Below are positions 33,320 through 45,835 of a DNA stretch of 64,000 bases, piece by piece. Source of the DNA: Apilactobacillus kunkeei DSM 12361 = ATCC 700308 (GTDB lineage Bacteria > Bacillota > Bacilli > Lactobacillales > Lactobacillaceae). Both the position numbers and the translations under genes were made by a program. How positions within the stretch are numbered: position 1 is the stretch's first letter; each line of letters begins with the position of its first letter. Below the pieces are notes generated by a model. The model did not search any database. It saw nothing but the letters and a program-made list of their open reading frames with translations, and was not told the origin of the DNA. Location of the stretch: NCBI RefSeq assembly GCF_001281265.1, contig NZ_JXDB01000009.1, positions 1 to 64,000 of the forward strand, given 5' to 3'.

Positions 33320-33625
33320 ATGGCTAATAATAGATATTCATATGAAACTAAACTAGAAGCCGTCCGGCTTCTTAATGAAGGTGTTCCAGGTAGAAAGATT
33401 TGTAAAATATTGGGATTAAAGAGTGATGGTTTAATTTATACGTGGCGTAAATATGTAAGAAACGGTGATTATTATCGTTTGAATCAAAAACCTGGAAAGC
33501 AATATAAATATAATAAAGGTAATTTGGAGCTACCCAGTGATGTCATAAAAGACATGGAAATTAAACAAATGAAAGAAGAACTTGAAGTTATAAAAAAATA
33601 TTTAATCATGGAAGGGCTGTGGTAA
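33320..33625 (+). CDS. IS3-family transposase OrfA (helix-turn-helix)
   Basis: 101 residues. N-terminal HTH (about 8-50) with YSYETKLEAVRLLNEG and a second helix pair IYTWRKYVRNGD, then a leucine-zipper-like tail (MKEELEVIKKYLIMEG). Binds the IS ends. Near its end it holds an A7 run at 33592-33598 in the phase A-AAA-AAA, a canonical -1 slippery site; the -1 frame is open from there into orfB, so an OrfAB fusion transposase can be made. Confidence 0.92.
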   Translation: MANNRYSYETKLEAVRLLNEGVPGRKICKILGLKSDGLIYTWRKYVRNGDYYRLNQKPGKQYKYNKGNLELPSDVIKDMEIKQMKEELEVIKKYLIMEGLW

Positions 33626-34470
33626 ACCAAGATACTATTAGATTAATCGATACTTTTACATCCAAAATACCTTTAGTTAGAATTTGTCAGTATCTTAATA
33701 TATCTAGAAGCACCTATTACTACCATAAAAAACATGCAGATCATTTTAATTTAAATCGGATTGAACAGGAGATTCAACAGCTATGTATAAAAACGAAGTT
33801 TTTATATGGTTATCGTAAAATTCATGCACTAATTAATAAGTACTTAAAATGCAGTGTTAGTAAAGTTCAAAGAATTATGGCTAAATATGGTTGGGGGTGT
33901 CGTATAAAACGTAAAAGATCCCATCGACCTGGTAATCCATTCAAACAATTTGATAATATAATCAATCGTGATTGGAGCGTTAGTGTACCCAAACGTAAAT
34001 TAACTACTGATATCACTTATATTCCTTGCGGAAATAAGATGTTATACCTTTCTACAATAATGGATAGTTTTAATTCGGAAATCATTGCTCATAAAATTTC
34101 TAATCATCCAAATACACAATTGGCCTTAGATACATTAAATCAATTAGGCTATTTAAATGGAGCTATTATTCATAGTGATCAAGGTTCCACTTATACTTCA
34201 CGTGAATTTTATGAATTAGCACGTAAAAAAGGCGCCATCAGAAGCATGTCCCGAAAAGGCACGCCAGCTGATAACGCCATCATCGAATCATTTCACGCCA
34301 ACCTAAAGACTGAAATGATATACACACAAGCTAAACCTAAAGGTTTAGCTGATACAATCAAGTGTGTAAATAATTATATCAAATTTTGGAATAATAAACG
34401 AATACTAACAAAATTAGGCAACCAATCCCCTGTAGAATACAGAAAATCAGTTGCCCAATTAAATAGTTAG
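33619..34470 (+). CDS. IS3-family transposase OrfB (DDE integrase core)
   Basis: 283 residues. HTH_21-like start (about 25-80, ending in QRIMAKYGWGCRIKRK), then the rve core: first Asp in LTTDITYIPCG, second Asp in IHSDQGSTYTS, and Glu in ADNAIIESFHANLKTE. All three catalytic residues are present. Nominal GTG start at 33619 overlaps orfA by 7 bases in the -1 frame; in practice it is expected to be expressed as an OrfAB fusion by frameshifting. Confidence 0.92.
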   Translation: MVNQDTIRLIDTFTSKIPLVRICQYLNISRSTYYYHKKHADHFNLNRIEQEIQQLCIKTKFLYGYRKIHALINKYLKCSVSKVQRIMAKYGWGCRIKRKRSHRPGNPFKQFDNIINRDWSVSVPKRKLTTDITYIPCGNKMLYLSTIMDSFNSEIIAHKISNHPNTQLALDTLNQLGYLNGAIIHSDQGSTYTSREFYELARKKGAIRSMSRKGTPADNAIIESFHANLKTEMIYTQAKPKGLADTIKCVNNYIKFWNNKRILTKLGNQSPVEYRKSVAQLNS

Positions 34471-34617: not shown

Positions 34618-35289
34618 TTATTTGCCTTTAGCGATGTAATCTAAGATTGCATACATCACTTGTTTATTTTCTTTTGGTACTGGTCTAGCTAAGATATCTT
34701 CATTAGATTGATTCAAAGCAGATCCAGTAACGTACTTGTTATCGTTGGTGACAATCTCTCTGACTTCGTCAGTACCTAGTTCAAAGTGGAATTGTAAACC
34801 AACAATTCTGTCACCAATGATGAATCCTTGGTTTTCCACCAAATCACTGGAGAATAATAATTCACCGTTTTTGGGAATTTCAAATGTTTCCCCGTGCCAA
34901 TGCATTGCAGTAAGCTTGTTGTAAATTCCAGGAATGCGTTCGGATCTTAAGTATACAGGTGCCCATCCTACTTCCTTAGCCGTTGAAGTAGTAATCTTGG
35001 CACCGAATGTTTTGGCAATTTGTTGTGCACCAAAACAAGCACCGTAGATTGGAACATCTTTTTTTGCAAGTTCTTTAATAATATCACGTTCGAACCCAAT
35101 CCAATCAATAGCATCGTTAACGCTCATTGGACCACCCATGATAACTAACATATCTGTTTCATTGACCTTTGGTAGGATACCAAATTGGTATGGATGGTAA
35201 ATGTAAACATCATGTCCCCTGTCATGTGCCCAATCCAAAATCGAACCGGGGCGTTCGTTTGGAGTATGTTGAATAATATTAATACGCAT
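34618..35289 (-). CDS. class I glutamine amidotransferase-like protein
   Basis: 223 residues of the GATase1 fold related to the glutaminase part of GMP synthase. Nucleophile elbow YGACFGAQQIAK (Cys near 85), and His-Glu in LQFHFELG (near 169-174) complete the triad; GGPMSVND near 53-60 forms the oxyanion strand. It lacks a synthase domain. Such stand-alone proteins hydrolyse glutamine or gamma-glutamyl compounds; the substrate is unknown. It marks the core-genome edge left of the defence island. Confidence 0.85.
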   Translation of the reverse strand: MRINIIQHTPNERPGSILDWAHDRGHDVYIYHPYQFGILPKVNETDMLVIMGGPMSVNDAIDWIGFERDIIKELAKKDVPIYGACFGAQQIAKTFGAKITTSTAKEVGWAPVYLRSERIPGIYNKLTAMHWHGETFEIPKNGELLFSSDLVENQGFIIGDRIVGLQFHFELGTDEVREIVTNDNKYVTGSALNQSNEDILARPVPKENKQVMYAILDYIAKGK

Positions 35290-35355
35290 TATCTTCGCCT
35301 ACTTTTACATTCATTTTTTATAGAAAGTAATATATAACAAAAAACATGAGAGTGC

Positions 35356-35385
35356 AAAAAAGACACCTGAGTGGAGGTGTCTTTT
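35356..35385 (-). terminator. terminator after the DUF2075 gene (GACACC-type)
   Basis: AAAAGACACCT, loop CCACTC, AGGTGTCTTTTTT on the minus strand. The stem shares its GACACC sequence with the terminators at 37511 and 44431. Confidence 0.9.
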
Positions 35386-35389
35386 AAAT

Positions 35390-37171
35390 TTACTTACTCT
35401 GTCGCAGTAGTTCTTTTCTTAGTTCGTCATCAACTGCATAAATGAATAGTCCATGAACACCACGTTTTAATAATACGTTAAGCTGGTTTCGAATTAATTC
35501 TGATGATATATCCTTCTGTTCACCATTTTTCATTGTTCTTTTTTCTTTAACCTGTCTATCAAAGCTTTTTGACCCATCATAAACTAATTTACCGTTTCTA
35601 AATTTAATGGATGGGCCAAGAATAACCCCACAATAATTCAAGTCAAATCCTTGAATTGTGAATGTTGAACCAACTTCATTAATTGTTTGAGGCTGTTCAG
35701 CCCATGATAGTCCTCTATATTTCTTCTCAGCAGGTAATTGATAATTCCAAGGAAGATTAAATTTATCACCAATTGATACTCTCCATAAATCATCAATTGT
35801 AGTTCCATCGTCTTTAACAACTTTATGATATTTACTTGATTTAAATTTCCAATCATAAGTTGCAACCATTCTAGATAGTCCCTTTGTTAATGACTCGATA
35901 CTATCATTATGCTTCTTAATTGCATCGTACATATCATTGATATCGTCAAAAATTCTTAAATCATATTTGTCATCATATGGAATCTTTTTAATTTTATCCT
36001 TAGTAACAATATCTTCAATCCAATCAATTGTTTCTTTTGAAGCATCCATTCTATTTTGTTCAGATAATTCAATAAGTTGATGGTTTGATTTTGCTCTGTT
36101 TATTAAGTCGTCATAAAATGATTTTTCAACATAACCGTTTCGCTTTAAAACTTGCATCGGATCTAACACTGCTACAACCACATCAGATACGCTTCTTATA
36201 TCTTTTAAATGACCTGATCCTTGATATACCATGTAACCTTCAGTAAGCAACAAATGAGCTTCGTCTATTAAAGCAATATCTATTTTTGAATTTTCATCTC
36301 CAACTTGATGCTTATTTAAAAACTTTGTTGGTTTATTAACTATGGAATCTCCTAGTCTTGTTTTAATACCTATTTTCTGTGCAATGTTTTCATATACTTT
36401 CACTTGTTGATCATGATTTACAATCATATATGCTTCTTGATTTTCAGGTTTATTAAGTTCAGCAAATAAAGAACTTAAAAGAACCGTCTTACCTGTTCCA
36501 GCAGAACCCTTAATAATAATCAAATTATCTGTACTACGTCTTTCACGAATATCTTCGATTTTATCAATTATTTCATCTCTAGCATCTAGTTGTTCGTCAG
36601 TTAACTTATGAAAAGGAGATGCTTTAAAAATTGCAGAATTGGTAATATCATCGACACTCGGAAATATATCCTTATTTTTCTTGGATAATTCTTCCCAAAT
36701 GTTTTGAAAAATATCTCTAAAATGATCTCTCGTAAAGTATAAATCTTGATCATTCGATCTACGATTATTTAGTTCACCAATGGCATCGTCACTAAGAAGA
36801 TATTTCATTAATTGATTTTCAATATCTAAAGTTAAAGACTTGTTAAATTCTTTATGAGCAATAACAATAATCTTAGCATCCTTAGAATTATTTAATTCTG
36901 TCCAATCAGTTCTATCTTCTGATTCGCTGTTCAGATGTTCTTCAGTTCTTCTAACAATATTGTTAGTTTCTCCTACATATGCTTTAAATTGACCGAACTT
37001 CTTTTTATTACCACTAATTTTATCTATAACTATGTATACAGTTGGGAATCTAGTTATTAATTCATGCTCTTCACTAGTATTATTTTGTTTTAAAATTTCT
37101 TGTTTTATGTCACTATTAGTATTGTAATCATATTTTCTAATAATTGGTTTAGCTATGTTGTTATCTGACAT
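35390..37171 (-). CDS. GIY-YIG nuclease fused to DUF2075 helicase-like ATPase
   Basis: 593 residues, cytoplasmic. Residues about 43-145 form a GIY-YIG nuclease with all expected residues: Tyr in VYIVID, YVGET near 65-69, Arg in NNIVRR, Glu118 in DIENQLMKYL and Asn in LNNRRS. From about 215 follows a superfamily-1-like DUF2075 ATPase: Walker A KGSAGTGKT (221-229), Walker B with DEAH at 303-306 (ALIDEAHLLL), sensor VVAVLDPMQ, and a late motif STFTIQGFDLN. The gene diverges from a MazG-like gene with only 32 bp between the starts. Found in a defence island next to an R-M enzyme and an Abi reverse transcriptase, so anti-phage function is likely but inferred. Confidence 0.85.
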   Translation of the reverse strand: MSDNNIAKPIIRKYDYNTNSDIKQEILKQNNTSEEHELITRFPTVYIVIDKISGNKKKFGQFKAYVGETNNIVRRTEEHLNSESEDRTDWTELNNSKDAKIIVIAHKEFNKSLTLDIENQLMKYLLSDDAIGELNNRRSNDQDLYFTRDHFRDIFQNIWEELSKKNKDIFPSVDDITNSAIFKASPFHKLTDEQLDARDEIIDKIEDIRERRSTDNLIIIKGSAGTGKTVLLSSLFAELNKPENQEAYMIVNHDQQVKVYENIAQKIGIKTRLGDSIVNKPTKFLNKHQVGDENSKIDIALIDEAHLLLTEGYMVYQGSGHLKDIRSVSDVVVAVLDPMQVLKRNGYVEKSFYDDLINRAKSNHQLIELSEQNRMDASKETIDWIEDIVTKDKIKKIPYDDKYDLRIFDDINDMYDAIKKHNDSIESLTKGLSRMVATYDWKFKSSKYHKVVKDDGTTIDDLWRVSIGDKFNLPWNYQLPAEKKYRGLSWAEQPQTINEVGSTFTIQGFDLNYCGVILGPSIKFRNGKLVYDGSKSFDRQVKEKRTMKNGEQKDISSELIRNQLNVLLKRGVHGLFIYAVDDELRKELLRQSK

Positions 37172-37203
37172 TTAGAAAGTACCTACCTTAAAGGAGATTT
37201 TTT

Positions 37204-37512
37204 ATGGAATATAAAAATATAATTCAAGAATTAATTGAATTTAGAAACGACAGATGCTGGAATGAATACCATACTCTTATATCATTATCTAGAGCTTTAG
37301 GTATTGAAGCTTCTGAGGTAGAAAAAATATTTCTTTGGAAAAAAGATGATAGCTCTCTATCATCCGCGGATAAAGAAAAATTGAAGTTAGAATTAGCTGA
37401 TGTATTAATATATTGCTACTACATGTGCGATAAACTACAAGTTAATCCTAATGATATTATACAAGAAAAAATAAACATTAATAAAGGTCGAAGTTGGAAA
37501 TTCGACAAATAA
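37204..37512 (+). CDS. MazG-like nucleotide pyrophosphohydrolase (RS21-C6/dCTPase-type)
   Basis: 102 residues, all-alpha. Shows the metal-binding pattern of the all-alpha NTP pyrophosphatases: EASE at 35-38 and ELAD at 63-66, plus FRNDRCWNEYHT near 13-23 and a C-terminal NINKGRSWKFD typical of the small dimeric MazG/DCTPP1 type. These enzymes split (d)NTPs to monophosphate and pyrophosphate. AAGGAG is upstream of the ATG. It is the only plus-strand gene of the island, head to head with the GIY-YIG/DUF2075 gene, so the two are probably one functional unit. Confidence 0.85.
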   Translation: MEYKNIIQELIEFRNDRCWNEYHTLISLSRALGIEASEVEKIFLWKKDDSSLSSADKEKLKLELADVLIYCYYMCDKLQVNPNDIIQEKININKGRSWKFDK

Positions 37513-37540
37513 AAAAGACACCCTGAGGGTGTCTTTTTTT
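37511..37540. terminator. bidirectional terminator MazG-like gene / Type ISP gene (GACACC-type)
   Basis: AAAAAAGACACCCT, one-base loop G, AGGGTGTCTTTTTTT. The 14-base arm is identical to that of the terminator at 44431-44460. Confidence 0.93.
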
Positions 37541-37541
37541 A

Positions 37542-40500
37542 TTATTCATCAATTTCGAAAGGTGGTAATTCGTCTATCAAATCAAGAGTCTTAATACTTA
37601 CTGTAATAACAGAAAGTATTAAGTTAAGGATATACTTAGGATCATCACTAAACTCATTAGGATCATCTGTAATACCAGACTTTTTATCAGTTTTAACCCT
37701 GTATTGATCGATTATCCACTCTATAGCTGGCTTCCCATTAACAACATAGTCATAAGCTCTTTCAGGAATATTAGTTATCTTAATGTCATTGTTATAAACA
37801 ATTGTATCTAACTCACCTTTCTTTGGATGTTTCATCTTTTCAACTAGATAACTTGGGTTATCATTTGAATATTCAATTTTAACTTCATCAATTTTATTTT
37901 GATTTTCGTAGTTAAGATGTAAATCAGCTAGTTCCTTACCAACTTCAATGTATTTATTTCTATTTTTTAATTTAGGAATTCTTGGTAAATCTTTCTTTAA
38001 ATCATTTTGATATTTATTTCTATATTCAGTTGAATGAAGAACACCATATACATAATAAAATTCATCATCGCTAGAAACATTATCTATTTTACTATCTAAT
38101 AAATCACTATCATCATATACATAACGTGGTAAATTTTTAGAATTTGTTAACAACATAAGATCTGAAACTAAATTCGACATAATTAAAGAAAAATCAGATT
38201 TATTTGAAGTTCCAGAAAAATTAATTTGTAGATTTTTATTCTTTGCATTAGGAAAAGATAAATATGATTTTCTAACATTTTCGTTTAAGAACCTACTCCT
38301 ATATAACCATTTTTTGGTAAATGGTCTGTACATGTATGGGATTATGTTATCGCTATTGAATTTTACATTTTTTAATTTAGCAGCTTTTTGCTTTAAACTT
38401 CTTGACCAAGATATTTGTCTTGAATCGTTATTAACGTAATCAGAAATAGTTTTATAATCAAACTTTTTTTTAATCTTACTTAATTTAGAAACATCATTGT
38501 TATAGTTATCTATCATACTAGAAACATTTTTACTTAAATCATTATAAGAAAAATTAACAACCCATGAATCTCTATTTGTCACTATACCCATATCTCTTAC
38601 GTTAAAGATAGAATCATCTTCATCGGCTACGGATGGATAATTTACATAGTTCATATCTCTTTGATTTATCCAATCATTATTCTTGTCCGGAACAATATTT
38701 TTCCAATCAATTAAACTAATTGAATCATTATATTGTAATATTTTTAATTTGTTTTCACGACTCAAATAATCTCCTATATCATGATAATGAATTTCATGAT
38801 TATTACTACCATCTTTAACTAAAATAGAAATTGAAATAGGGGTTCTACTTCCGGAACCAAATATCTTCCCTCCTTCTTTACGTGATATTTCACCTTGGGT
38901 TCTCTGATCTCCACGTAAGTTATATATATATAGGTGATTAAACTCTTCGAATAATGATTTTCGTAATCCATCAGCCGATTGACTATCTACGTATGATCCA
39001 TTGGAAACAAATCCTATTACTCCATTCTCCTTAATTCTATTTGAAGCCCATCTAATAGCCAATACGTAACTATCATACATACCTAAAACACTATTTGATT
39101 TTGACTTTTTTACATAGGTTTTTGATATAGATTTAAATAATTCAGGATAAGATACATTTTGATTATTATCATTTTCACTAGATTGTCCTTTAGAATATGG
39201 TGGATTTCCAACGATAACAGTTATCGGTGTTTCTTGCTCTTTCTTTAATCTTTCATCATTTTCACCAAATATCTTGTCATCCAAAGTATCTTTATTTTCT
39301 GTACTTGCAAATGTATCAGTTAAAACTATTCCTTCGAATTGTTTATAATCTTCCTTCTCATTACCGTATTCATTGTTTATTTCTTCAAATGTTGATTCGA
39401 TATTAATTGCAGCAATGTAATAACTTAATAACACAATTTCATTAGCATGCATATCATGCATGTACTTTGATAAAATCTCATCAAATGTAATTTCGCCTTT
39501 ATCAAGTTTTTCTTTGAAATGATATAGCAATCTAGTCATGAAAGTTCCAGTCCCTGTAAAAGGATCCAAAATATGAACATTTTTATCAATTAAAGATTTA
39601 TTGAAATATTTTCTTAATGAATCATCAACTGAATTAACAATAAAATCAACAACTTCCACAGGAGTAAATACAATACCTAATTGTTCGGTAGTTTTCTTAA
39701 ATCCAGTTCTAAAAAATTTATCATAAAGTGTTAAGATAAGTTTTTGCTTACCGGCGGCATTATCAATTCCAGTTGCTCTTAACTTAATAGAATCATAAAA
39801 CGGCTTTAATTCCGCTTGTTCTTTATCAAATCCAAACATGCTAAATGCACCAACCACATCATTCATGGCTTTTGATACGGCATTATTTCTTACGAAAGAG
39901 TATTCACCAAATAGTGCTTCAAAAATTGGTTCAGTAATTAAATGTTGAGCAAGCATTTCAATAGCCTGTTCTTTTCCAATACTGTTATTAATATTGTAAT
40001 GCAAACTATTTAAGAAATTATCAAACGCCATTTTTGCCCCATCGTTAGAATCGATAATGTCACTGATTCTAGTGATATGTCTTTTAGCAATATCAGCAAC
40101 ATCTTTAGACCAATCTTCAAGATATCTTCTGTCACCAACTTTTTGTACTACCTTACCATAGAATGCATTACGCATATCTTGCCAATCCAGTGGTAATTCA
40201 AGTTGTTCAGTAACGTTTTCTTGTTCAGCTTTTAATCCATCTTCTTCAGTAACATTTGAATCAGGACTACTATTAACCCCAATAAGTTCAAGGTTCTCTG
40301 GTTTCTTCTTATTTAAATCAATTTTATTTACTTCAGCATCAAAACGATCATCAGTTGAACGTAAGGCATTTAATACTTGCCATACTTCTTTATATTTGCT
40401 GTCATTATCCAATGCAGAGCTTGGATCTACACCCTCAGAAACAACAATTGGTAGAATAATATATCCATATTCCTTATTTTGTGCTTTTCTCATGATACGT

Positions 40501-42254
40501 CCGACTGCTTGAACAATATCAACTTGTGACTTCTTAGGACTAAAGAAAATAATCGCATCAAGATTTGGAACGTCAATACCTTCAGTCAAGAATCGAACAT
40601 TAGAAAGAATTCTAGCACGATTATCCTCAATATGTTCATCACCAAGCCAATCAATTTGTTCAGTCTTTTGGAGTGCATTAAGACCACCATCAACGTGGTG
40701 AACATCCACCATAAAGCTTTCACTTGATTGTGTATCTAGGTATTCATTAACAACAGAAGAGAATTCTTTAGAAATCGCTTTTGAATGCTTAATAGTATCT
40801 GAGAATGCAATTGCTCGCTTCATTGGAGCACCAGTAACTTCACCTGTTATTCCATTACGTTTTACCATAGCGTTCCAAACACCAATAATTTTACCGATAT
40901 CATCAACTTTTAGTTGATTATCAGCAGCCATTATTTGTTGCATATCTTTATTGATATAAGACTCACTTACGGCTAAAACAGAAACTTTATAGTCTGTTAA
41001 GTATCCTTGAGCAACTGCGTCACCGAATCCTAAACGAAAGATTTCGTGTCCGTATTTTTCAGGATCATCCATTGAAGAAACAACTATACTATTTTCTTCT
41101 GCCTTTTTCTTAGCGTTTTGATCATAAATTTTTGGTGTAGCAGTTTGATAAAGTCTAAGCTTACCTTTAACATTCGAATTAGAATGTACTTCTGTGAACA
41201 TACTATCTTCATTTAATTTATTTGCACCAGTCGTTCTATGTGCTTCATCAGCAATAATTAAATCAAATTCTGGGTAACCCATTTCTTGAGCTTGCTTAAT
41301 AACATCGATAGATTGGTAAGTTGAGAATATTACAGTCATTTCTCGTCCAGTGTCTAACTCTTTTACATACTCGTAGTTTTTAATTAGTTCATTAACATCA
41401 GTCGTTGCCGGGAAGCCAATATCTTTAGAACTTAAATCATCGTCACTTTCTTTACCCTTTTTTGTGGCCTTACGGTCAGAGACAACAGAAAAAGAGGTCA
41501 TATGAATATCTTCACTGACGTCATCGTTCCAATTAAATAATGTTTGCGATAATAATTGAATACTTGGAACTAAATATAAAACATTAAACTTACTCTTTAC
41601 TTGATCCTTCATAAGAGCTTCAGTAATTTTTAAACTTGTAAACGTCTTTCCAGTTCCTGGAGCCATAATTAATTTTCCACGGTCATGGTAATCTTCATTG
41701 CTCTTAAAATATTCAACAGCATTTTTGATTGCTTCTTCTTGATATCCTCTAAGCTTTTTTGGCTTTTTAATTGATAAATCATTATCTTCAGAAAATGAGA
41801 ATTTACCCCAATCAACACTTGAGTTCTTCAATTGTGTTAAACCAATAATTGAGAATGGTTTTGAAGTGTTTTTTAGTGTTGATTCAGCATTTTTATTCCA
41901 TTCATCAGTTGTTGAAACAATAATCCCAGCAGAATAACAGTCTTTACCTGTCTCAGCAACAAAAGAATTAATTGCATCTTTGCCGACTTTGCCTTTATAA
42001 AATTTTGCTTGAACAGCTGTTAATTGACCATTAAAATCTTTAGCAACAATATCAACACCTGTATCAATACGTGATATTCCAAGATTTGTTGGAACGTCAG
42101 ATAGCATCCAGACATCTGAATACTTCTTTTTATAAATTGGTTCATTTTTTAAATACGCAACTACCATCTTTTCAAAAGCAGTTCCACGATCTCTATCATT
42201 TGTTAAATGTTCATTTATTTCATCAATTAATTCATTAAATGTTTTTGAACTCAA
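37542..42254 (-). CDS. Type ISP single-polypeptide restriction-modification enzyme (LlaGI-like)
   Basis: About 1570 residues combining nuclease, translocase, methyltransferase and target recognition, the same plan and size as LlaGI/LlaBIII of lactococci. Residue numbers count from the longest frame. Mrr-like nuclease 1-140 with Asp71 and QAK (85-87). SF2 translocase with Walker A APGTGKT (201-207), DEAH (339-342), TATP and QAVGRIMRKA (585-594). N6-adenine methylase with DPFTGTGT (900-907) and NPPY (1020-1023). The rest, about 1100-1573, should read the DNA target. TTG at 42254 is preferred as start because GAGGGG lies nine bases upstream; the ATG at 42263 directly abuts that site. No separate specificity gene exists, as expected for this class. 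The gene appears intact. Confidence 0.92.
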   Translation of the reverse strand: MSSKTFNELIDEINEHLTNDRDRGTAFEKMVVAYLKNEPIYKKKYSDVWMLSDVPTNLGISRIDTGVDIVAKDFNGQLTAVQAKFYKGKVGKDAINSFVAETGKDCYSAGIIVSTTDEWNKNAESTLKNTSKPFSIIGLTQLKNSSVDWGKFSFSEDNDLSIKKPKKLRGYQEEAIKNAVEYFKSNEDYHDRGKLIMAPGTGKTFTSLKITEALMKDQVKSKFNVLYLVPSIQLLSQTLFNWNDDVSEDIHMTSFSVVSDRKATKKGKESDDDLSSKDIGFPATTDVNELIKNYEYVKELDTGREMTVIFSTYQSIDVIKQAQEMGYPEFDLIIADEAHRTTGANKLNEDSMFTEVHSNSNVKGKLRLYQTATPKIYDQNAKKKAEENSIVVSSMDDPEKYGHEIFRLGFGDAVAQGYLTDYKVSVLAVSESYINKDMQQIMAADNQLKVDDIGKIIGVWNAMVKRNGITGEVTGAPMKRAIAFSDTIKHSKAISKEFSSVVNEYLDTQSSESFMVDVHHVDGGLNALQKTEQIDWLGDEHIEDNRARILSNVRFLTEGIDVPNLDAIIFFSPKKSQVDIVQAVGRIMRKAQNKEYGYIILPIVVSEGVDPSSALDNDSKYKEVWQVLNALRSTDDRFDAEVNKIDLNKKKPENLELIGVNSSPDSNVTEEDGLKAEQENVTEQLELPLDWQDMRNAFYGKVVQKVGDRRYLEDWSKDVADIAKRHITRISDIIDSNDGAKMAFDNFLNSLHYNINNSIGKEQAIEMLAQHLITEPIFEALFGEYSFVRNNAVSKAMNDVVGAFSMFGFDKEQAELKPFYDSIKLRATGIDNAAGKQKLILTLYDKFFRTGFKKTTEQLGIVFTPVEVVDFIVNSVDDSLRKYFNKSLIDKNVHILDPFTGTGTFMTRLLYHFKEKLDKGEITFDEILSKYMHDMHANEIVLLSYYIAAINIESTFEEINNEYGNEKEDYKQFEGIVLTDTFASTENKDTLDDKIFGENDERLKKEQETPITVIVGNPPYSKGQSSENDNNQNVSYPELFKSISKTYVKKSKSNSVLGMYDSYVLAIRWASNRIKENGVIGFVSNGSYVDSQSADGLRKSLFEEFNHLYIYNLRGDQRTQGEISRKEGGKIFGSGSRTPISISILVKDGSNNHEIHYHDIGDYLSRENKLKILQYNDSISLIDWKNIVPDKNNDWINQRDMNYVNYPSVADEDDSIFNVRDMGIVTNRDSWVVNFSYNDLSKNVSSMIDNYNNDVSKLSKIKKKFDYKTISDYVNNDSRQISWSRSLKQKAAKLKNVKFNSDNIIPYMYRPFTKKWLYRSRFLNENVRKSYLSFPNAKNKNLQINFSGTSNKSDFSLIMSNLVSDLMLLTNSKNLPRYVYDDSDLLDSKIDNVSSDDEFYYVYGVLHSTEYRNKYQNDLKKDLPRIPKLKNRNKYIEVGKELADLHLNYENQNKIDEVKIEYSNDNPSYLVEKMKHPKKGELDTIVYNNDIKITNIPERAYDYVVNGKPAIEWIIDQYRVKTDKKSGITDDPNEFSDDPKYILNLILSVITVSIKTLDLIDELPPFEIDE

Positions 42255-42272
42255 AATCGTCATCCCCTCAAA

Positions 42273-42293
42273 AGATGTAATTTATTTACATCT
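42273..42293. promoter_or_regulatory. 21-bp inverted repeat ahead of the Type ISP gene
   Basis: AGATGTAA, five bases, TTACATCT: perfect 8-bp arms directly upstream of the ribosome binding site. May be an operator or a 5' hairpin limiting expression of the R-M enzyme. No regulator gene is adjacent. Confidence 0.5.
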
Positions 42294-42369
42294 ATATGTA
42301 TATAAGCATTTTACCATTTAAATCGATACTGTTTCCAATTAGATTATAATTAAAATAAGCACTCATTAT

Positions 42370-42401
42370 AAAAAAGCACATCTAAAAGATGTACTTTTTT
42401 G
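42370..42401 (-). terminator. terminator after the reverse transcriptase gene
   Basis: AAAAAAG-T-ACATCT, loop TTT, AGATGT-G-CTTTTTT on the minus strand, 37 bp after the RT stop. Confidence 0.85.
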
Positions 42402-42437
42402 TTTCTTTTCGTAATTAAATTTTGTGAAAAAGTACCG

Positions 42438-44324
42438 TTACTTAGTATTTATTTCATTCTCCATTTCCCGTTGAAAATCATCTAATAATTTGATTGTATT
42501 ATATATTTCTTCTTTTTTTAAATCGTTATGATCTAATAGTTCTGATCCAGAATGAACTAACGGATTCCCATTTCTAATCCGATAGGTATCTTTAATTTTT
42601 TGCGCTATTTCATTCATATGATTATTATGAACTTTATTAACTATTTCATTAATTTCATTTGCCCTATAACTCTTATTAAATGATATTTTCCCATTTTTCT
42701 TTTGAGTCCCAGCTATTCCAATTGCAGCCATTAAATACGCTAAACGTCTATCAAAATAGTTCTTATAATAAGCAAATGTTTCAAATAAATTATTCTGATT
42801 ATCATTTAATAAATACATGAAGTATAAATAATGAATGATTCTATCTTTATTCATCTTTTTTACGATCTCATTACTATCTTCTGTTAAAGTATATTCTACA
42901 TCATGTTCACAATAATCGTTTATATAACAAAATAGTTCGTTATTTTTGTCTTTCAAAATATTTTTTAAATCATTATGTTTGAAATTTCTCCCCAGCAAAT
43001 ATTGATATATCATAATTTCATAATATCTAGAGTACTCATCACTTCTAGATTTTTCAAATACTCTACGTAAAAAGTTCTTTATTAGGTATCCATCATTACT
43101 GTCAAGCAACATTTGTATAAATTGTTTTGGATAATGCCTGAATATGCTTAATTTATTTGATAATTCTGTAAGATATAGTACCACCTCATTTTCATGAAAT
43201 AACCCTTTATTCTTATAGAGTAACCAATTAAAAATCTCAGTATAATGAAATGAATATTTATTATTTCCCATGTTTTTTTTCAATACATCTTCGACTTCCT
43301 TATGATCTGGAAAATCAGGAAGATCATACAATTCCTTAAGCATTTTTACAAAATCGTCTTTTGAAAATAGCTCTTTATAGTCAACATCTTCTACATTAAC
43401 TATATAATCATAAATATTTTTATAAAGTTCTTCATCTATGTTCTCAGATACTCCAAAACCTTGTTTATTGATATTTATATTAACTCCAATATCTATTGAT
43501 GCATTCTGTATTGATTGAGTTATCTGTTCTTTTACCATTCTGATATCTTTATCATCACAATTAAAAACTATATATAAATCATCAACATACCTCAACAATT
43601 CAAAGTCTTTAGAATCTAGAAAATTTCCTATTCTTTTAGTAATATTCCTATCATATTCTGTTAAGTAGAACATGGTCGCTATAAAAGAAATTCCAGTATT
43701 ATCCATTATTATTGGCATTCTATTTTTACCAAAAAACTCTAATAAATTTTTATAAAAGTAAAGTGATCTGATATCTTCACCATTACACATTTTCTCGATA
43801 TTCTTAAATAAATATTCTAGACGTATATTTGGATAAAAATTACTTATATCCATCTTGATATAATAATCATATTGACTTTTATATTGTTTTAATGCTACTG
43901 TAAATCGTTCATAACTTTTTGAGTAATTTAAATCCTCTGTATCATAATCACCAGCATATAACTTACTATGTATATCATCTTTATATTCTGATTTTAAATT
44001 ATTATGAAAATGTCCTCCAAGGACGATAAAAAATAAAAAAATTATCGGAGTAACCAAATTTATTTCTCTCAAAGTTCCATCATTTTTTGTAACAACAGTC
44101 TTATAGGATTTTAGCTCTTGATCATTTAAGAAAGCACACGTTCTTATATAATCATCGAAAAATCTTCTAGATAGAATCATTTTTCTGGTTTTTTCATCCA
44201 TTTTAGTGAATGGATATGATTGTATATATTTACATAAAACATTATTATCAGTTTCAAAATACATACTGATATACTTATTCCATTCTTCATAAGAAATACT
44301 TATAAAATCATTTTCGTTCAACAA
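42438..44324 (-). CDS. AbiA-like abortive-infection reverse transcriptase with C-terminal HEPN motif
   Basis: 628 residues from the preferred start, about the length of lactococcal AbiA. The RT core shows motif A YYIKMDISNFYPNI (about 154-167), motif B NTGISFIATMFY and motif C LRYVDDLYIVF with YVDD at 246-249, so it should be catalytic. The C-terminal helical half ends in an RNGNPLVH segment (Arg584 to His591), an R-x6-H HEPN-type RNase motif as described for AbiA. Start: a promoter at 44362-44390 would begin RNA near 44355, inside the frame that opens at ATG 44396, so that ATG cannot be used; TTG 44324 lies six bases after AAAGGTAGG. Codon use is strongly A+T-rich compared with rlmD. No partner gene or retron RNA is evident. 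Confidence 0.85.
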   Translation of the reverse strand: MLNENDFISISYEEWNKYISMYFETDNNVLCKYIQSYPFTKMDEKTRKMILSRRFFDDYIRTCAFLNDQELKSYKTVVTKNDGTLREINLVTPIIFLFFIVLGGHFHNNLKSEYKDDIHSKLYAGDYDTEDLNYSKSYERFTVALKQYKSQYDYYIKMDISNFYPNIRLEYLFKNIEKMCNGEDIRSLYFYKNLLEFFGKNRMPIIMDNTGISFIATMFYLTEYDRNITKRIGNFLDSKDFELLRYVDDLYIVFNCDDKDIRMVKEQITQSIQNASIDIGVNININKQGFGVSENIDEELYKNIYDYIVNVEDVDYKELFSKDDFVKMLKELYDLPDFPDHKEVEDVLKKNMGNNKYSFHYTEIFNWLLYKNKGLFHENEVVLYLTELSNKLSIFRHYPKQFIQMLLDSNDGYLIKNFLRRVFEKSRSDEYSRYYEIMIYQYLLGRNFKHNDLKNILKDKNNELFCYINDYCEHDVEYTLTEDSNEIVKKMNKDRIIHYLYFMYLLNDNQNNLFETFAYYKNYFDRRLAYLMAAIGIAGTQKKNGKISFNKSYRANEINEIVNKVHNNHMNEIAQKIKDTYRIRNGNPLVHSGSELLDHNDLKKEEIYNTIKLLDDFQREMENEINTK

Positions 44325-44361
44325 TATAAACCTACCTTTTTGCCTTTTTTTATATGTATTT

Positions 44362-44390
44362 AGTATAAATATTTGTGAACACTTAAACAA
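44362..44390 (-). promoter_or_regulatory. reverse transcriptase promoter
   Basis: Minus strand: -35 TTGTTT (44385-44390), 17-bp spacer, -10 TATACT (44362-44367). Decides that the gene starts at TTG 44324 rather than ATG 44396. Confidence 0.7.
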
Positions 44391-44430
44391 CAGCATTTAA
44401 TAAATAGTTATATAATTTTAATCTTAAACA

Positions 44431-44460
44431 AAAAAAGACACCCTCTTCAGGGTGTCTTTT
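44431..44460 (-). terminator. rlmD terminator (GACACC-type)
   Basis: AAAAGACACCCT, loop GAAG, AGGGTGTCTTTTTT on the minus strand. Its stem is the same as that of the terminator at 37511-37540. Confidence 0.92.
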
Positions 44461-44467
44461 CCTTTAT

Positions 44468-45835
44468 CTATTTCTTTTCAAATACAGTCACTGATTCAAC
44501 GTGAACAGTTTGTGGGAATTGATCAACCGGTTGAACTGGTTGAGTGATTTCATAACCGTATTCAGCTAAACGACGTGCATCACGTACTAATGTTGATGGG
44601 TTACATGATACATAAACAATCTTCTTAGGCGCTACTTGAGCAGCACTGTCGATGAATGATGATGCAAGTCCCTTACGTGGAGGATCAACCATGATAACAT
44701 CTGGTTTCAATCCTTGTGCTTGCCATTTTTCCATTTGTTCCTCTGCACTACCGGCTACAAATGTAGTGTTGTTGATGTGGTTCTTTTGAGCGTTAATCTT
44801 AGCATCTTCGATAGCTTCCTTAACGATTTCGACACCATAGACTTTCTTAGCATGTTCAGCAACCGCTAATGAAATAGTACCGATACCACAGTAAGCATCG
44901 ATTACTGTCTGAGTACCATCTAGTTGAGCCTTTTCAATTGCAAGAGAATAAAGTTTTTCAGTTTGTTCTGGGTTAACTTGGTAGAATGAGTTCAATGAAA
45001 TAGCGAACTTCAAGCCAAGTAACTTATCTTCGATGTACTTCTTACCATCTAGACAAACGGTACTCTTACCTAATAATCCGTTACCATCTGACAAATTGAT
45101 GTTTTGCATGATACTTGTCACTTCTGGTAAGGCTTCCTTGATTTCACGAACAATTATATCAACCATTGGAATCTTCTTGGTACGAGTAATTAAACCAATC
45201 ATCATTTCGTTAGTGTAGTGTCCTCTTCTAACCATGATGTTTCTAATCACACCATTGTGCTTAGTTTCATTGTATGGTTCAATGTGGTACTTACGTAAGA
45301 TGTCTCTAACGACAACAATAGCTTTATCGATTTCTGGATCTTGAATGTAAAAATCTTCAATGGTTACTAAATCGTGTGAGTGCTTACGGAAGAAACCAGT
45401 TTGTAGTTTTCCATTAATTGAACGAACTGGAATTTGCGCCTTGTTTCTGTAATGAGTTGGATTATCCATCCCAATAGTTGGTAATACTTCAACATCCATC
45501 TTAGACTTATCGAAAAGTTCTTGGATTTGATGTTGTTTGAATTCCAATTGAGCATCATATTTTAGATGTTGTAATGGAGCGATTCCTGTACGAGTGTAGT
45601 TCTTATCAATGTTTTCTACACGATCTGGTGATTTAGTTAGTAATTTTTCTAACTTTGCGAAACCAAAGTTTTGGTTAACTTTGATTACTTTAATCAAAGC
45701 TTTTTCGCCTGGAAGAGTGTCTTCAATAAACAAAGGATAATCCTCTATCTTAGCGACTCCTAAGCCTTGATAAGTTAAGTCGATAATATCGACTTCATAT
45801 TCTTCGTTCTTTGTAACTGGTGCTTTAAATTTCAT
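44468..45835 (-). CDS. rlmD: 23S rRNA (uracil-5-)-methyltransferase, RlmD/RlmCD type
   Basis: 455 residues. N-terminal TRAM domain (about 8-60), then the RumA-type SAM methyltransferase: IDAYCGIGTISLA near 315-327, MVDPPRKGL near 381-389, and catalytic Cys in YVSCNPSTLVRD. The four cysteines that hold the [4Fe-4S] cluster in E. coli RlmD are absent (segment RTGIAPLQHL where CxxC would be), as in many Gram-positive homologues. In Gram-positives one such enzyme (RlmCD) can methylate both U747 and U1939, so either target is possible. Last gene of the pcrA-ligA-camS-gatCAB-dgkB cluster. Confidence 0.92.
   Translation of the reverse strand: MKFKAPVTKNEEYEVDIIDLTYQGLGVAKIEDYPLFIEDTLPGEKALIKVIKVNQNFGFAKLEKLLTKSPDRVENIDKNYTRTGIAPLQHLKYDAQLEFKQHQIQELFDKSKMDVEVLPTIGMDNPTHYRNKAQIPVRSINGKLQTGFFRKHSHDLVTIEDFYIQDPEIDKAIVVVRDILRKYHIEPYNETKHNGVIRNIMVRRGHYTNEMMIGLITRTKKIPMVDIIVREIKEALPEVTSIMQNINLSDGNGLLGKSTVCLDGKKYIEDKLLGLKFAISLNSFYQVNPEQTEKLYSLAIEKAQLDGTQTVIDAYCGIGTISLAVAEHAKKVYGVEIVKEAIEDAKINAQKNHINNTTFVAGSAEEQMEKWQAQGLKPDVIMVDPPRKGLASSFIDSAAQVAPKKIVYVSCNPSTLVRDARRLAEYGYEITQPVQPVDQFPQTVHVESVTVFEKK

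What the first reader, a model, noticed from the sequence alone, without database searches (positions are those of the whole stretch)
35390..37512. GIY-YIG/DUF2075 nuclease-helicase paired head-to-head with a MazG-like pyrophosphohydrolase: candidate anti-phage system
Seen: an intact GIY-YIG nuclease (Tyr, YVGET, Arg, Glu118, Asn) fused to an intact DUF2075 ATPase, and a small MazG-type enzyme with both metal motifs (EASE, ELAD). Their start codons are 32 bp apart and the two ribosome sites nearly overlap, so the promoters must lie inside each other's coding region and the 5' ends of the mRNAs are antisense. Known: MazG-type enzymes remove (d)NTPs, GIY-YIG cuts DNA, and both occur in defence loci. 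Inference: the pair is one module in which nuclease-helicase action on invading DNA is coupled to nucleotide depletion or removal of modified nucleotides. I cannot match it to a named defence system with confidence.
Basis: partly seen in the sequence, partly recalled or inferred. Interest (0 to 1): 0.72.

Follow-up and report, generated by a model that had tools for sequence, protein, structure and literature searches.

The report
Nuclease-helicase and nucleotide-hydrolase defence pair
Two neighbouring genes, one for a DNA-cutting helicase and one for an enzyme that breaks down DNA building blocks, form a repeatedly rearranged but often kept pair that sits among known anti-virus genes and is probably an undescribed bacterial defence system.

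Summary
In detail: 35390-37171(-) encodes a GIY-YIG nuclease fused to a PF09848 (formerly DUF2075) helicase; 37204-37512(+) encodes a MazG-like protein (PF12643) whose active-site positions match dCTP pyrophosphatase 1. The linkage is real: in 150 relatives, 32 of 45 such nuclease genes have PF12643 beside them, against 2 of 80 other PF09848 hits, both GIY-YIG genes matched in pieces. Gene order among linked rows changed at least 10 times on a tree while spacing stayed tight. In Apilactobacillus the pair shares a hot spot with restriction genes; neighbours are rich in defence genes. MazG also accompanies PD-(D/E)XK-like versions of the helicase. MazG is not obligatory: 13 of 45 loci lack it, and only 2 of 9 examined plasmid copies have it. 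No PADLOC model covers the pair; ten paper searches found no description. Best reading: an Nhi-like nuclease-helicase with an accessory dNTP pyrophosphohydrolase. No phage test was possible.

The parts
35390..37171 (-). GIY-YIG nuclease fused to PF09848 (SLFN-g3/DUF2075) SF1-like helicase, 593 aa
   Evidence: ORF; PF01541 and PF09848; catalytic and Walker residues invariant in 30 aligned sequences
36803..37042 (-). GIY-YIG domain, residues 44-123
   Evidence: one search match span converted to window coordinates
35429..36523 (-). PF09848 helicase domain, residues 217-581
   Evidence: the same span (G000:C9:35429-36523)
37172..37203 (.). 32-bp divergent intergenic gap holding both ribosome sites (by eye)
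   Evidence: sequence; relatives
37204..37512 (+). MazG-like (PF12643) NTP pyrophosphohydrolase of dCTPP1 type, 102 aa
   Evidence: dCTPP1/RS21-C6 and 4qgp matches; residue mapping
35358..35385 (.). Terminator hairpin AAAAGACACC..GGTGTCTTTT at the GIY/GATase border
37511..37539 (.). Terminator hairpin of the same type at the MazG/ISP border
44433..44460 (.). Third hairpin of the same type at the AbiA/rlmD border of the island
37542..42263 (-). Context: type ISP restriction-modification enzyme, 1573 aa
   Evidence: PF18135, PF22240, PF13156; PADLOC REase_MTase_I
42438..44396 (-). Context: AbiA abortive-infection reverse transcriptase, 652 aa
   Evidence: TIGR04499 E 3.6e-122; PADLOC AbiA

Best explanation
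A two-gene accessory immune module. The large protein works like Nhi: an SF1-like helicase motor loads on, or recognises, invading DNA or its replication intermediates and directs the attached nuclease (GIY-YIG here, PD-(D/E)XK-like in cousins) to cut it. The small protein, a dCTPP1-type pyrophosphohydrolase, hydrolyses dNTPs (most likely dCTP or a modified dCTP) to monophosphate and PPi, which starves repair and replication of the cut DNA or strips protective modified nucleotides. Shown here by sequence: both domains with intact catalytic residues; adjacency kept in many Bacillota lineages, and for the PD-(D/E)XK-like form in one archaeal plasmid; repeated reshuffling of order; hot-spot, plasmid, prophage and defence-gene context. 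Inferred: defence function, target, substrate and the cooperation of the two enzymes. MazG acts as a booster, not an obligate subunit or antitoxin, because solo loci are common.
For: Linkage: 32 of 45 GIY-YIG/PF09848 loci against 2 of 80 other hits, those 2 being GIY-YIG genes matched in pieces. 11 of 21 strong PF09848 places in 398 phylum genomes have the MazG profile within about 2 kb, one across an HNH gene. Coordinate differences of -34 to +36 bp in 36 of 39 linked rows (one gene counted twice); order among linked rows at least 10 changes, linked/solo at least 12. Genus: 9 of 16 genomes have both genes, 1 the nuclease alone, 6 neither, 0 PF12643 alone. Island with type ISP RM and AbiA, low GC. 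Same chromosomal interval holds the pair alone, Mrr, or type III RM in relatives (some names by eye). PADLOC families at E<=1e-40: 41 and 48 in 114+114 neighbours against 11 in 113 control neighbours. Prophage L161: overlapping pair between endolysin- and integrase-like genes. Plasmids: pair in L. plantarum beside an NTP pyrophosphohydrolase-helicase pair, and in L. salivarius beside type I S and M genes. The helicase of GIY-YIG relative L041 matches PADLOC Nhi at E 1.7e-14. MazG W19, E35, E38, W45, E63, D66, Y70, K89, N93 align with RS21-C6 W47, E63, E66, W73, E95, D98, Y102, K121, N125.
Against: No phage data. The window protein itself does not match PADLOC Nhi at E<=0.1. 13 of 45 loci have no adjacent above-cut-off PF12643; 11 of these 13 were looked at again with the MazG profile and stay solo, and 6 such genomes (G014, G019, G028, G043, G076, G080) have no PF12643 match at all. 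Of 10 plasmid records with at least 80% coverage I examined 9: 2 have MazG beside the nuclease, 7 do not. Of 46 IMG/VR MazG loci only 3 have a match to the nuclease-helicase profile, and 33 of 67 above-cut-off PF12643 places in the relatives are unlinked. The two trees agree only weakly (rho 0.30) and linked MazGs interleave with unlinked ones, so a tight complex is unlikely. Substrate not tested. Structure model unusable (pLDDT 53).
Confidence: 0.58

Rival explanations
1. MazG is a regulator or guard: by hydrolysing a nucleotide that activates or inhibits the nuclease-helicase it keeps the enzyme quiet, and infection (dNTP pool change or a phage inhibitor) releases it, as nucleotide depletion releases Ppl.
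For: Tight, often overlapping gene pairs. Ppl precedent: passages of PMC12904381 say NTPs inhibit Ppl until phage depletes the pool.
Against: 13 of 45 loci lack an adjacent PF12643, 6 of those genomes have no PF12643 match at all, and 7 of 9 examined plasmid copies are solo, so the nuclease is tolerated without it; weak tree agreement.
Confidence: 0.15
2. Housekeeping DNA repair and nucleotide sanitation: the nuclease-helicase repairs DNA and MazG removes damaged dNTPs; the pair is not immune.
For: GIY-YIG and SF1 helicases occur in repair; dCTPP1 sanitises dNTP pools (both recalled). Many unlinked MazGs lie in housekeeping-looking surroundings, such as near a NrdI-like gene (L095, L096; identity by eye).
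Against: 6 of 16 genomes of the genus have neither gene and PF12643 never occurs there without the nuclease; found on plasmids and a prophage, in a hot spot shared with restriction genes, and beside more defence families than the control.
Confidence: 0.12
3. The nuclease-helicase is an Nhi-like single-gene system and the MazG gene is a passenger: a separate nucleotide-depletion gene, or mobile cargo that shares island space.
For: Solo loci 13 of 45 and 7 of 9 on plasmids; MazG also sits beside other nucleases and inside an RM-like cluster (L062, L077, L089).
Against: In the relatives, apart from 2 GIY-YIG genes matched in pieces, none of the other 78 PF09848 hits is linked; spacing is that of coupled genes, and adjacency is kept through at least 10 order changes.
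Confidence: 0.15

Closest known systems
Nhi (nuclease-helicase immunity, Staphylococcus epidermidis) and AbiO
   Same: One polypeptide with a nuclease and a helicase. Helicase part of relatives L041, L042, L046, L048, L049 matches the PADLOC Nhi model at E 7e-13 to 1.7e-14 and AbiO at E 5.8e-12 to 8e-16; L040 matches AbiO only (4.2e-12)
   Different: Nhi is a single gene (passage of PMC12904381); here a MazG gene is often added. The nuclease is GIY-YIG. The window protein itself does not match the Nhi model at E<=0.1
dCTP pyrophosphatase 1 / RS21-C6 (all-alpha NTP-PPase, MazG superfamily)
   Same: Sequence relatives (E 1.4e-17 with profile A2); recalled metal and substrate positions conserved
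   Different: Small bacterial form beside a nuclease-helicase; substrate unknown; RS21-C6 H38 is Leu10 here
PADLOC PDC-S14 and PDC-S41 (candidate systems)
   Same: PDC-S14 matches the GIY-YIG part (window E 1.7e-4; L040 E 7.5e-9); PDC-S41 matches the PD-(D/E)XK-like cousins (best E 3.7e-18)
   Different: Partial matches only for the GIY-YIG fusion; the 3 MazG proteins scanned match no model
DefensePredictor predicted systems with a MazG domain (PMC13092281)
   Same: MazG is listed among domains predicted, not tested, to act in defence (passages and figure legends seen)
   Different: GIY-YIG, DUF2075 and Schlafen do not occur in its main text; the drawing of the MazG system was not available, so identity cannot be excluded

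Membership tests
GIY-YIG nuclease superfamily | Pfam match over cut-off and catalytic Tyr, Tyr/Gly, Arg, Glu, Asn (set recalled) | tested here: met
   24.3 bits against 22.6; Y46, Y65, G67, R75, E118, N136/N140 invariant in 30 aligned sequences
PF09848 SLFN-g3 / DUF2075 helicase | Full-length profile match with Walker A and B | tested here: met
   E 6.8e-84 over profile 3-354 of 354; G222, A224, G225, G227, K228, T229 and D303, E304 invariant
MazG-like PF12643 / dCTPP1-type pyrophosphohydrolase | ExxE ... ExxD metal site and substrate residues | tested here: met
MazG-like PF12643 / dCTPP1-type pyrophosphohydrolase | Hydrolysis of dCTP or modified dCTP | not testable with these tools
   needs purified enzyme
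Nhi | Match to the Nhi profile by the window protein | tested here: not met
   no Nhi match at E<=0.1; more distant relatives match
Nhi | Single-gene system | tested here: inconclusive
   MazG adjacent in 32 of 45 loci, absent in 13; whether the nuclease works alone is unknown
Nhi | Anti-phage activity governed by phage SSB | not testable with these tools
   experiment needed; Nhi and SSB as in passages of PMC12904381
Named PADLOC systems (2023) | Both proteins match models of one system | tested here: not met
   MazG no match; nuclease-helicase best E 6.9e-5, partial
Toxin-antitoxin pair | Nuclease never found without its partner | tested here: not met
   13 of 45 loci without adjacent above-cut-off PF12643; 6 of those genomes without any PF12643 match

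The most novel reading that the evidence does not exclude
A family of immune modules that couples DNA destruction to editing of the nucleotide pool: a helicase-driven nuclease (GIY-YIG or PD-(D/E)XK-like) with a dCTPP1-type enzyme that removes modified or ordinary dCTP, so that phage DNA is made unprotected, cannot be repaired, or both. This would join nuclease attack and dNTP depletion in one small cassette, spread from lactobacilli to at least one archaeal plasmid.
Probability: 0.3. Interest if true: 0.8.

Novelty: new variant of a known kind. Interest (0 to 1): 0.58.

Why it matters
MazG-type pyrophosphohydrolases are predicted but, by the text of PMC13092281, not experimentally validated as defence parts. 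A small, mobile gene pair with a preferred nuclease-helicase partner and clear catalytic residues makes that prediction directly testable and links Nhi/AbiO-style immunity to the nucleotide pool. It also shows that the 2023 PADLOC models miss a pair found in about 34 of the 150 relatives searched.

Tried and rejected
Promoters: consensus scan no better than shuffles. A mechanistic role of the antisense 5' ends was rejected because 22 of 32 linked loci are co-directional. Antitoxin role was rejected on solo loci. A purely housekeeping reading was rejected on distribution and context. Literature (ten searches): DUF2075 with GIY-YIG 0 papers, DUF2075 with MazG 0, GIY-YIG with MazG and defense 3, DUF2075 alone 5 (none on defence by title), Schlafen with GIY-YIG 0, MazG with anti-phage, pyrophosphohydrolase and defense system 4, GIY-YIG with helicase, anti-phage and defense island 5, MazG with Schlafen 1 unrelated by title, Nhi with nuclease-helicase and immunity 8, at least four of MazG, nuclease, helicase, defense island, nucleotide pyrophosphohydrolase 5. 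Papers: PMC13092281 passages and figure legends; PMC12904381, PMC10732053 and PMC10853773 passages; all others as search listings only. Newer DefenseFinder models could not be tested.

Rows dropped or chosen: one search left out 6 rows (second pieces and weak fragments: G029, G022, G117, G083, G051, G076:C1) and the PF12643 rows under the curated cut-off. The 2 linked rows among the 80 are G029 (one open frame of 629 aa matched in two pieces) and G117 (at a contig end); counting them, and G022 (a GIY-YIG gene with stops, unlinked), as nuclease loci gives 34 of 48 against 0 of 77. One search took 50 loci of my choice and gave 52 rows; one search dropped one duplicate (L004, same gene as L139). 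Two solo rows are a tandem second copy (L110_7040) and a distant protein (L135_8745) that may not belong. One search inspected 7 of the 13 unlinked loci within 1.5 kb, one search examined 11 of 13; G095 and G069 were not looked at again. The PADLOC tables count by family, show 25 of 41 and 25 of 48 families, and do not say which proteins match; 7 of 113 control proteins match mad3. Searches read 12 of the 37 records found. On revision I lowered the best explanation from 0.60 to 0.58 and raised the passenger rival from 0.13 to 0.15 because the plasmid and IMG/VR counts had been left out; the Nhi single-gene row became inconclusive.

Full report
What is there. The window lies in an Apilactobacillus-like genome: the closest named records are A. 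nanyangensis (97% protein identity) and A. zhangqiuensis (90%). Reading 35390-37171 on the minus strand gives 593 aa with GIY-YIG (PF01541) at residues 44-123 and PF09848, now named SLFN-g3 helicase and formerly DUF2075 (renaming recalled), at 217-581. Reading 37204-37512 on the plus strand gives 102 aa with PF12643. The start codons are 32 bp apart. In 30 aligned sequences the GIY-YIG residues, Walker A, Walker B and SF1-like motifs such as GSTxTxQG and LNVLxxRG are invariant (motif names recalled). In 24 MazG sequences W19, H23, E35, E38, W45, E63, D66, Y70, K89 and N93 are invariant.

What the small protein resembles. Its profile matches pyrophosphatase 4qgp (E 7e-29) and dCTP pyrophosphatase 1 / RS21-C6 (E 1e-17). 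Nine active-site positions that I recall for dCTPP1 (W47, E63, E66, W73, E95, D98, Y102, K121, N125) align with the same letters; H38, also recalled, is Leu10 here. A dNTP pyrophosphohydrolase with a leaning to dCTP types is therefore likely; this is inference. The genome also carries a separate canonical MazG match (PF03819).

Linkage. In 150 relatives, 45 hits include the GIY-YIG part; 32 have an above-cut-off PF12643 match within 300 bp (13 nuclease-then-MazG, 9 MazG-then-nuclease, 10 divergent). Of 80 other hits, 2 do, and both are GIY-YIG genes matched in pieces. 33 of 67 above-cut-off PF12643 places are unlinked, many in non-defence-looking surroundings. In the genus (16 genomes with the window's own) 9 have both genes, 1 the nuclease alone, 6 neither, and none PF12643 alone. 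In 398 genomes drawn from the phylum, 11 of 21 strong PF09848 places (over 90 bits) lie at the same loci as 11 of 29 strong MazG-profile places (E under 1e-15), one with an HNH gene between them. Some of these large proteins have a roughly 250-aa N-terminus with an RRIDF...VELKQW pattern that I read as PD-(D/E)XK (by eye; no Pfam match there). A haloarchaeal plasmid carries such a pair too.

Linkage is not universal. Of 10 plasmid records with at least 80% coverage I examined 9: L. plantarum and L. salivarius have the pair, the other 7 (L. fermentum, L. amylolyticus, F. sanfranciscensis, E. raffinosus, two Paenibacillus, Lysinibacillus) have no MazG-profile ORF within about 3 kb or more. In the 12 further plasmid or phage places scanned in all, 3 have MazG. 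Of 46 IMG/VR MazG loci, 3 have a nuclease-helicase match.

Evolution. Among 52 rows from 50 loci that I picked, 17 are nuclease-then-MazG, 11 MazG-then-nuclease, 11 divergent and 13 solo; 36 of the 39 linked rows (one gene counted twice) have coordinate differences between -34 and +36 bp, the others being +118, -64 and -213 (the last a start-codon artefact, by my reading). On a quick maximum-likelihood tree of 51 rows, linked/solo status needs at least 12 changes and order among linked rows at least 10; the divergent form needs 3 and is clustered in Apilactobacillus (long branches and no bootstrap, so counts are approximate). Adjacency kept while order flips is strong evidence for a functional pair. 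MazG itself has moved in and out of this context (11 changes, at least 3 forced by starred branches; short alignment), and the two trees agree only weakly (rho 0.30, 0 of 999 permutations as high; relatedness alone can give this). That fits an exchangeable enzyme better than a rigid complex.

Defence context. Next to the pair in the window stand a type ISP restriction-modification enzyme (37542-42263) and AbiA (42438-44396), in a GC dip. In relatives the stretch between the GATase gene and rlmD holds: the pair alone (G002, G005), the pair plus ISP and AbiA (window; G003 as far as its contig reaches), a PLD-like helicase with type III mod and res and an Mrr gene (G012), or an Mrr gene alone (G004). 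DNA identities to the window are 91-99% for flanking genes (85-88% in G008) and 81-93% for the nuclease gene (gene names of the G012 and G004 inserts by eye). Around 40 nuclease loci, 228 neighbour proteins give 41 and 48 PADLOC families at E<=1e-40 (Cas9, Cas1, Csn2, Cas8c, GajB, RTasHel, Avs2, five type IV restriction matches and type II RM among those listed), against 11 families in 113 neighbours of 20 stand-alone PF09848 genes, from one Cas1, one Csn2 and seven mad3-like proteins. The control is partly syntenic and so not fully independent. On plasmids the pair lies beside an NTP pyrophosphohydrolase-helicase pair (L. plantarum) or type I S and M genes (L. salivarius), and a solo copy near cas6 and cas10 (L. 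fermentum). In a prophage, nuclease and MazG overlap by 14 bp between endolysin-like and integrase-like genes (names by eye). GenBank phage records hold few matches: 4 of 50,697.

Known or not. No PADLOC 2023 model covers either window protein well. The more distant GIY-YIG member L041 and the PD-(D/E)XK-like cousins match the Nhi and AbiO models through the helicase, L040 only AbiO, so the large protein is best called Nhi-like in build; the window protein itself does not reach the Nhi model. DefensePredictor names MazG among predicted but untested defence domains; whether its drawn system is this pair could not be seen. My ten paper searches found no description of the pair.

Mechanism. Most likely the helicase senses or loads on foreign or replicating DNA and the nuclease cuts it, while the MazG enzyme lowers or edits the dNTP pool so that repair, replication or protective modification fails. 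Shown: domains, residues, linkage, context. Inferred: defence, target, substrate, cooperation. Solo loci mean MazG is an accessory.

Noticed in passing
window 35358, 37513, 44433; relatives L101, L102, L139, L208-L210: Terminator hairpins AAAAGACACC..GGTGTCTTTT stand at three cassette borders of the GATase-rlmD interval in the window and at one or two borders in each relative looked at; the exact pattern occurs 5 times in the whole genome, 3 of them here, 0 expected in the window. They may serve as recombination borders.
   Followed up: partly
window 34618-45835; L101, L102, L208, L209, L210: The GATase-rlmD interval is a defence hot spot in Apilactobacillus with at least four different contents.
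   Followed up: yes
L077 3087-6466; L062 4029-5400: MazG followed by an HNH protein, once also followed by a PD-(D/E)XK-like/PF09848 gene, once beside phage terminase genes.
   Followed up: partly
L089 2763-8184: A MazG gene inside a restriction-like cluster with MrcB_N/NOV_C, a HindI-like type I R protein, a weak RAMA match and PC4.
   Followed up: no
G000:C9:237670-238917: A stand-alone PF09848 gene in the same genome; the extended match runs over an in-frame stop, but the PF09848 part lies in one open frame of 415 aa.
   Followed up: no
L110 (G080), L013: Two PF09848 proteins of the nuclease-helicase kind in tandem without MazG.
   Followed up: no
window 33320-34470: IS3-family transposase pair (HTH and rve ORFs) directly left of the hot spot, without a match in the same place in G002, G005 and G004.
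   Followed up: partly
L168, L206 (IMG/VR): Two further layouts of MazG and a nuclease-helicase profile match: tail to tail (L168) and head to head with overlapping ORFs (L206).
   Followed up: no
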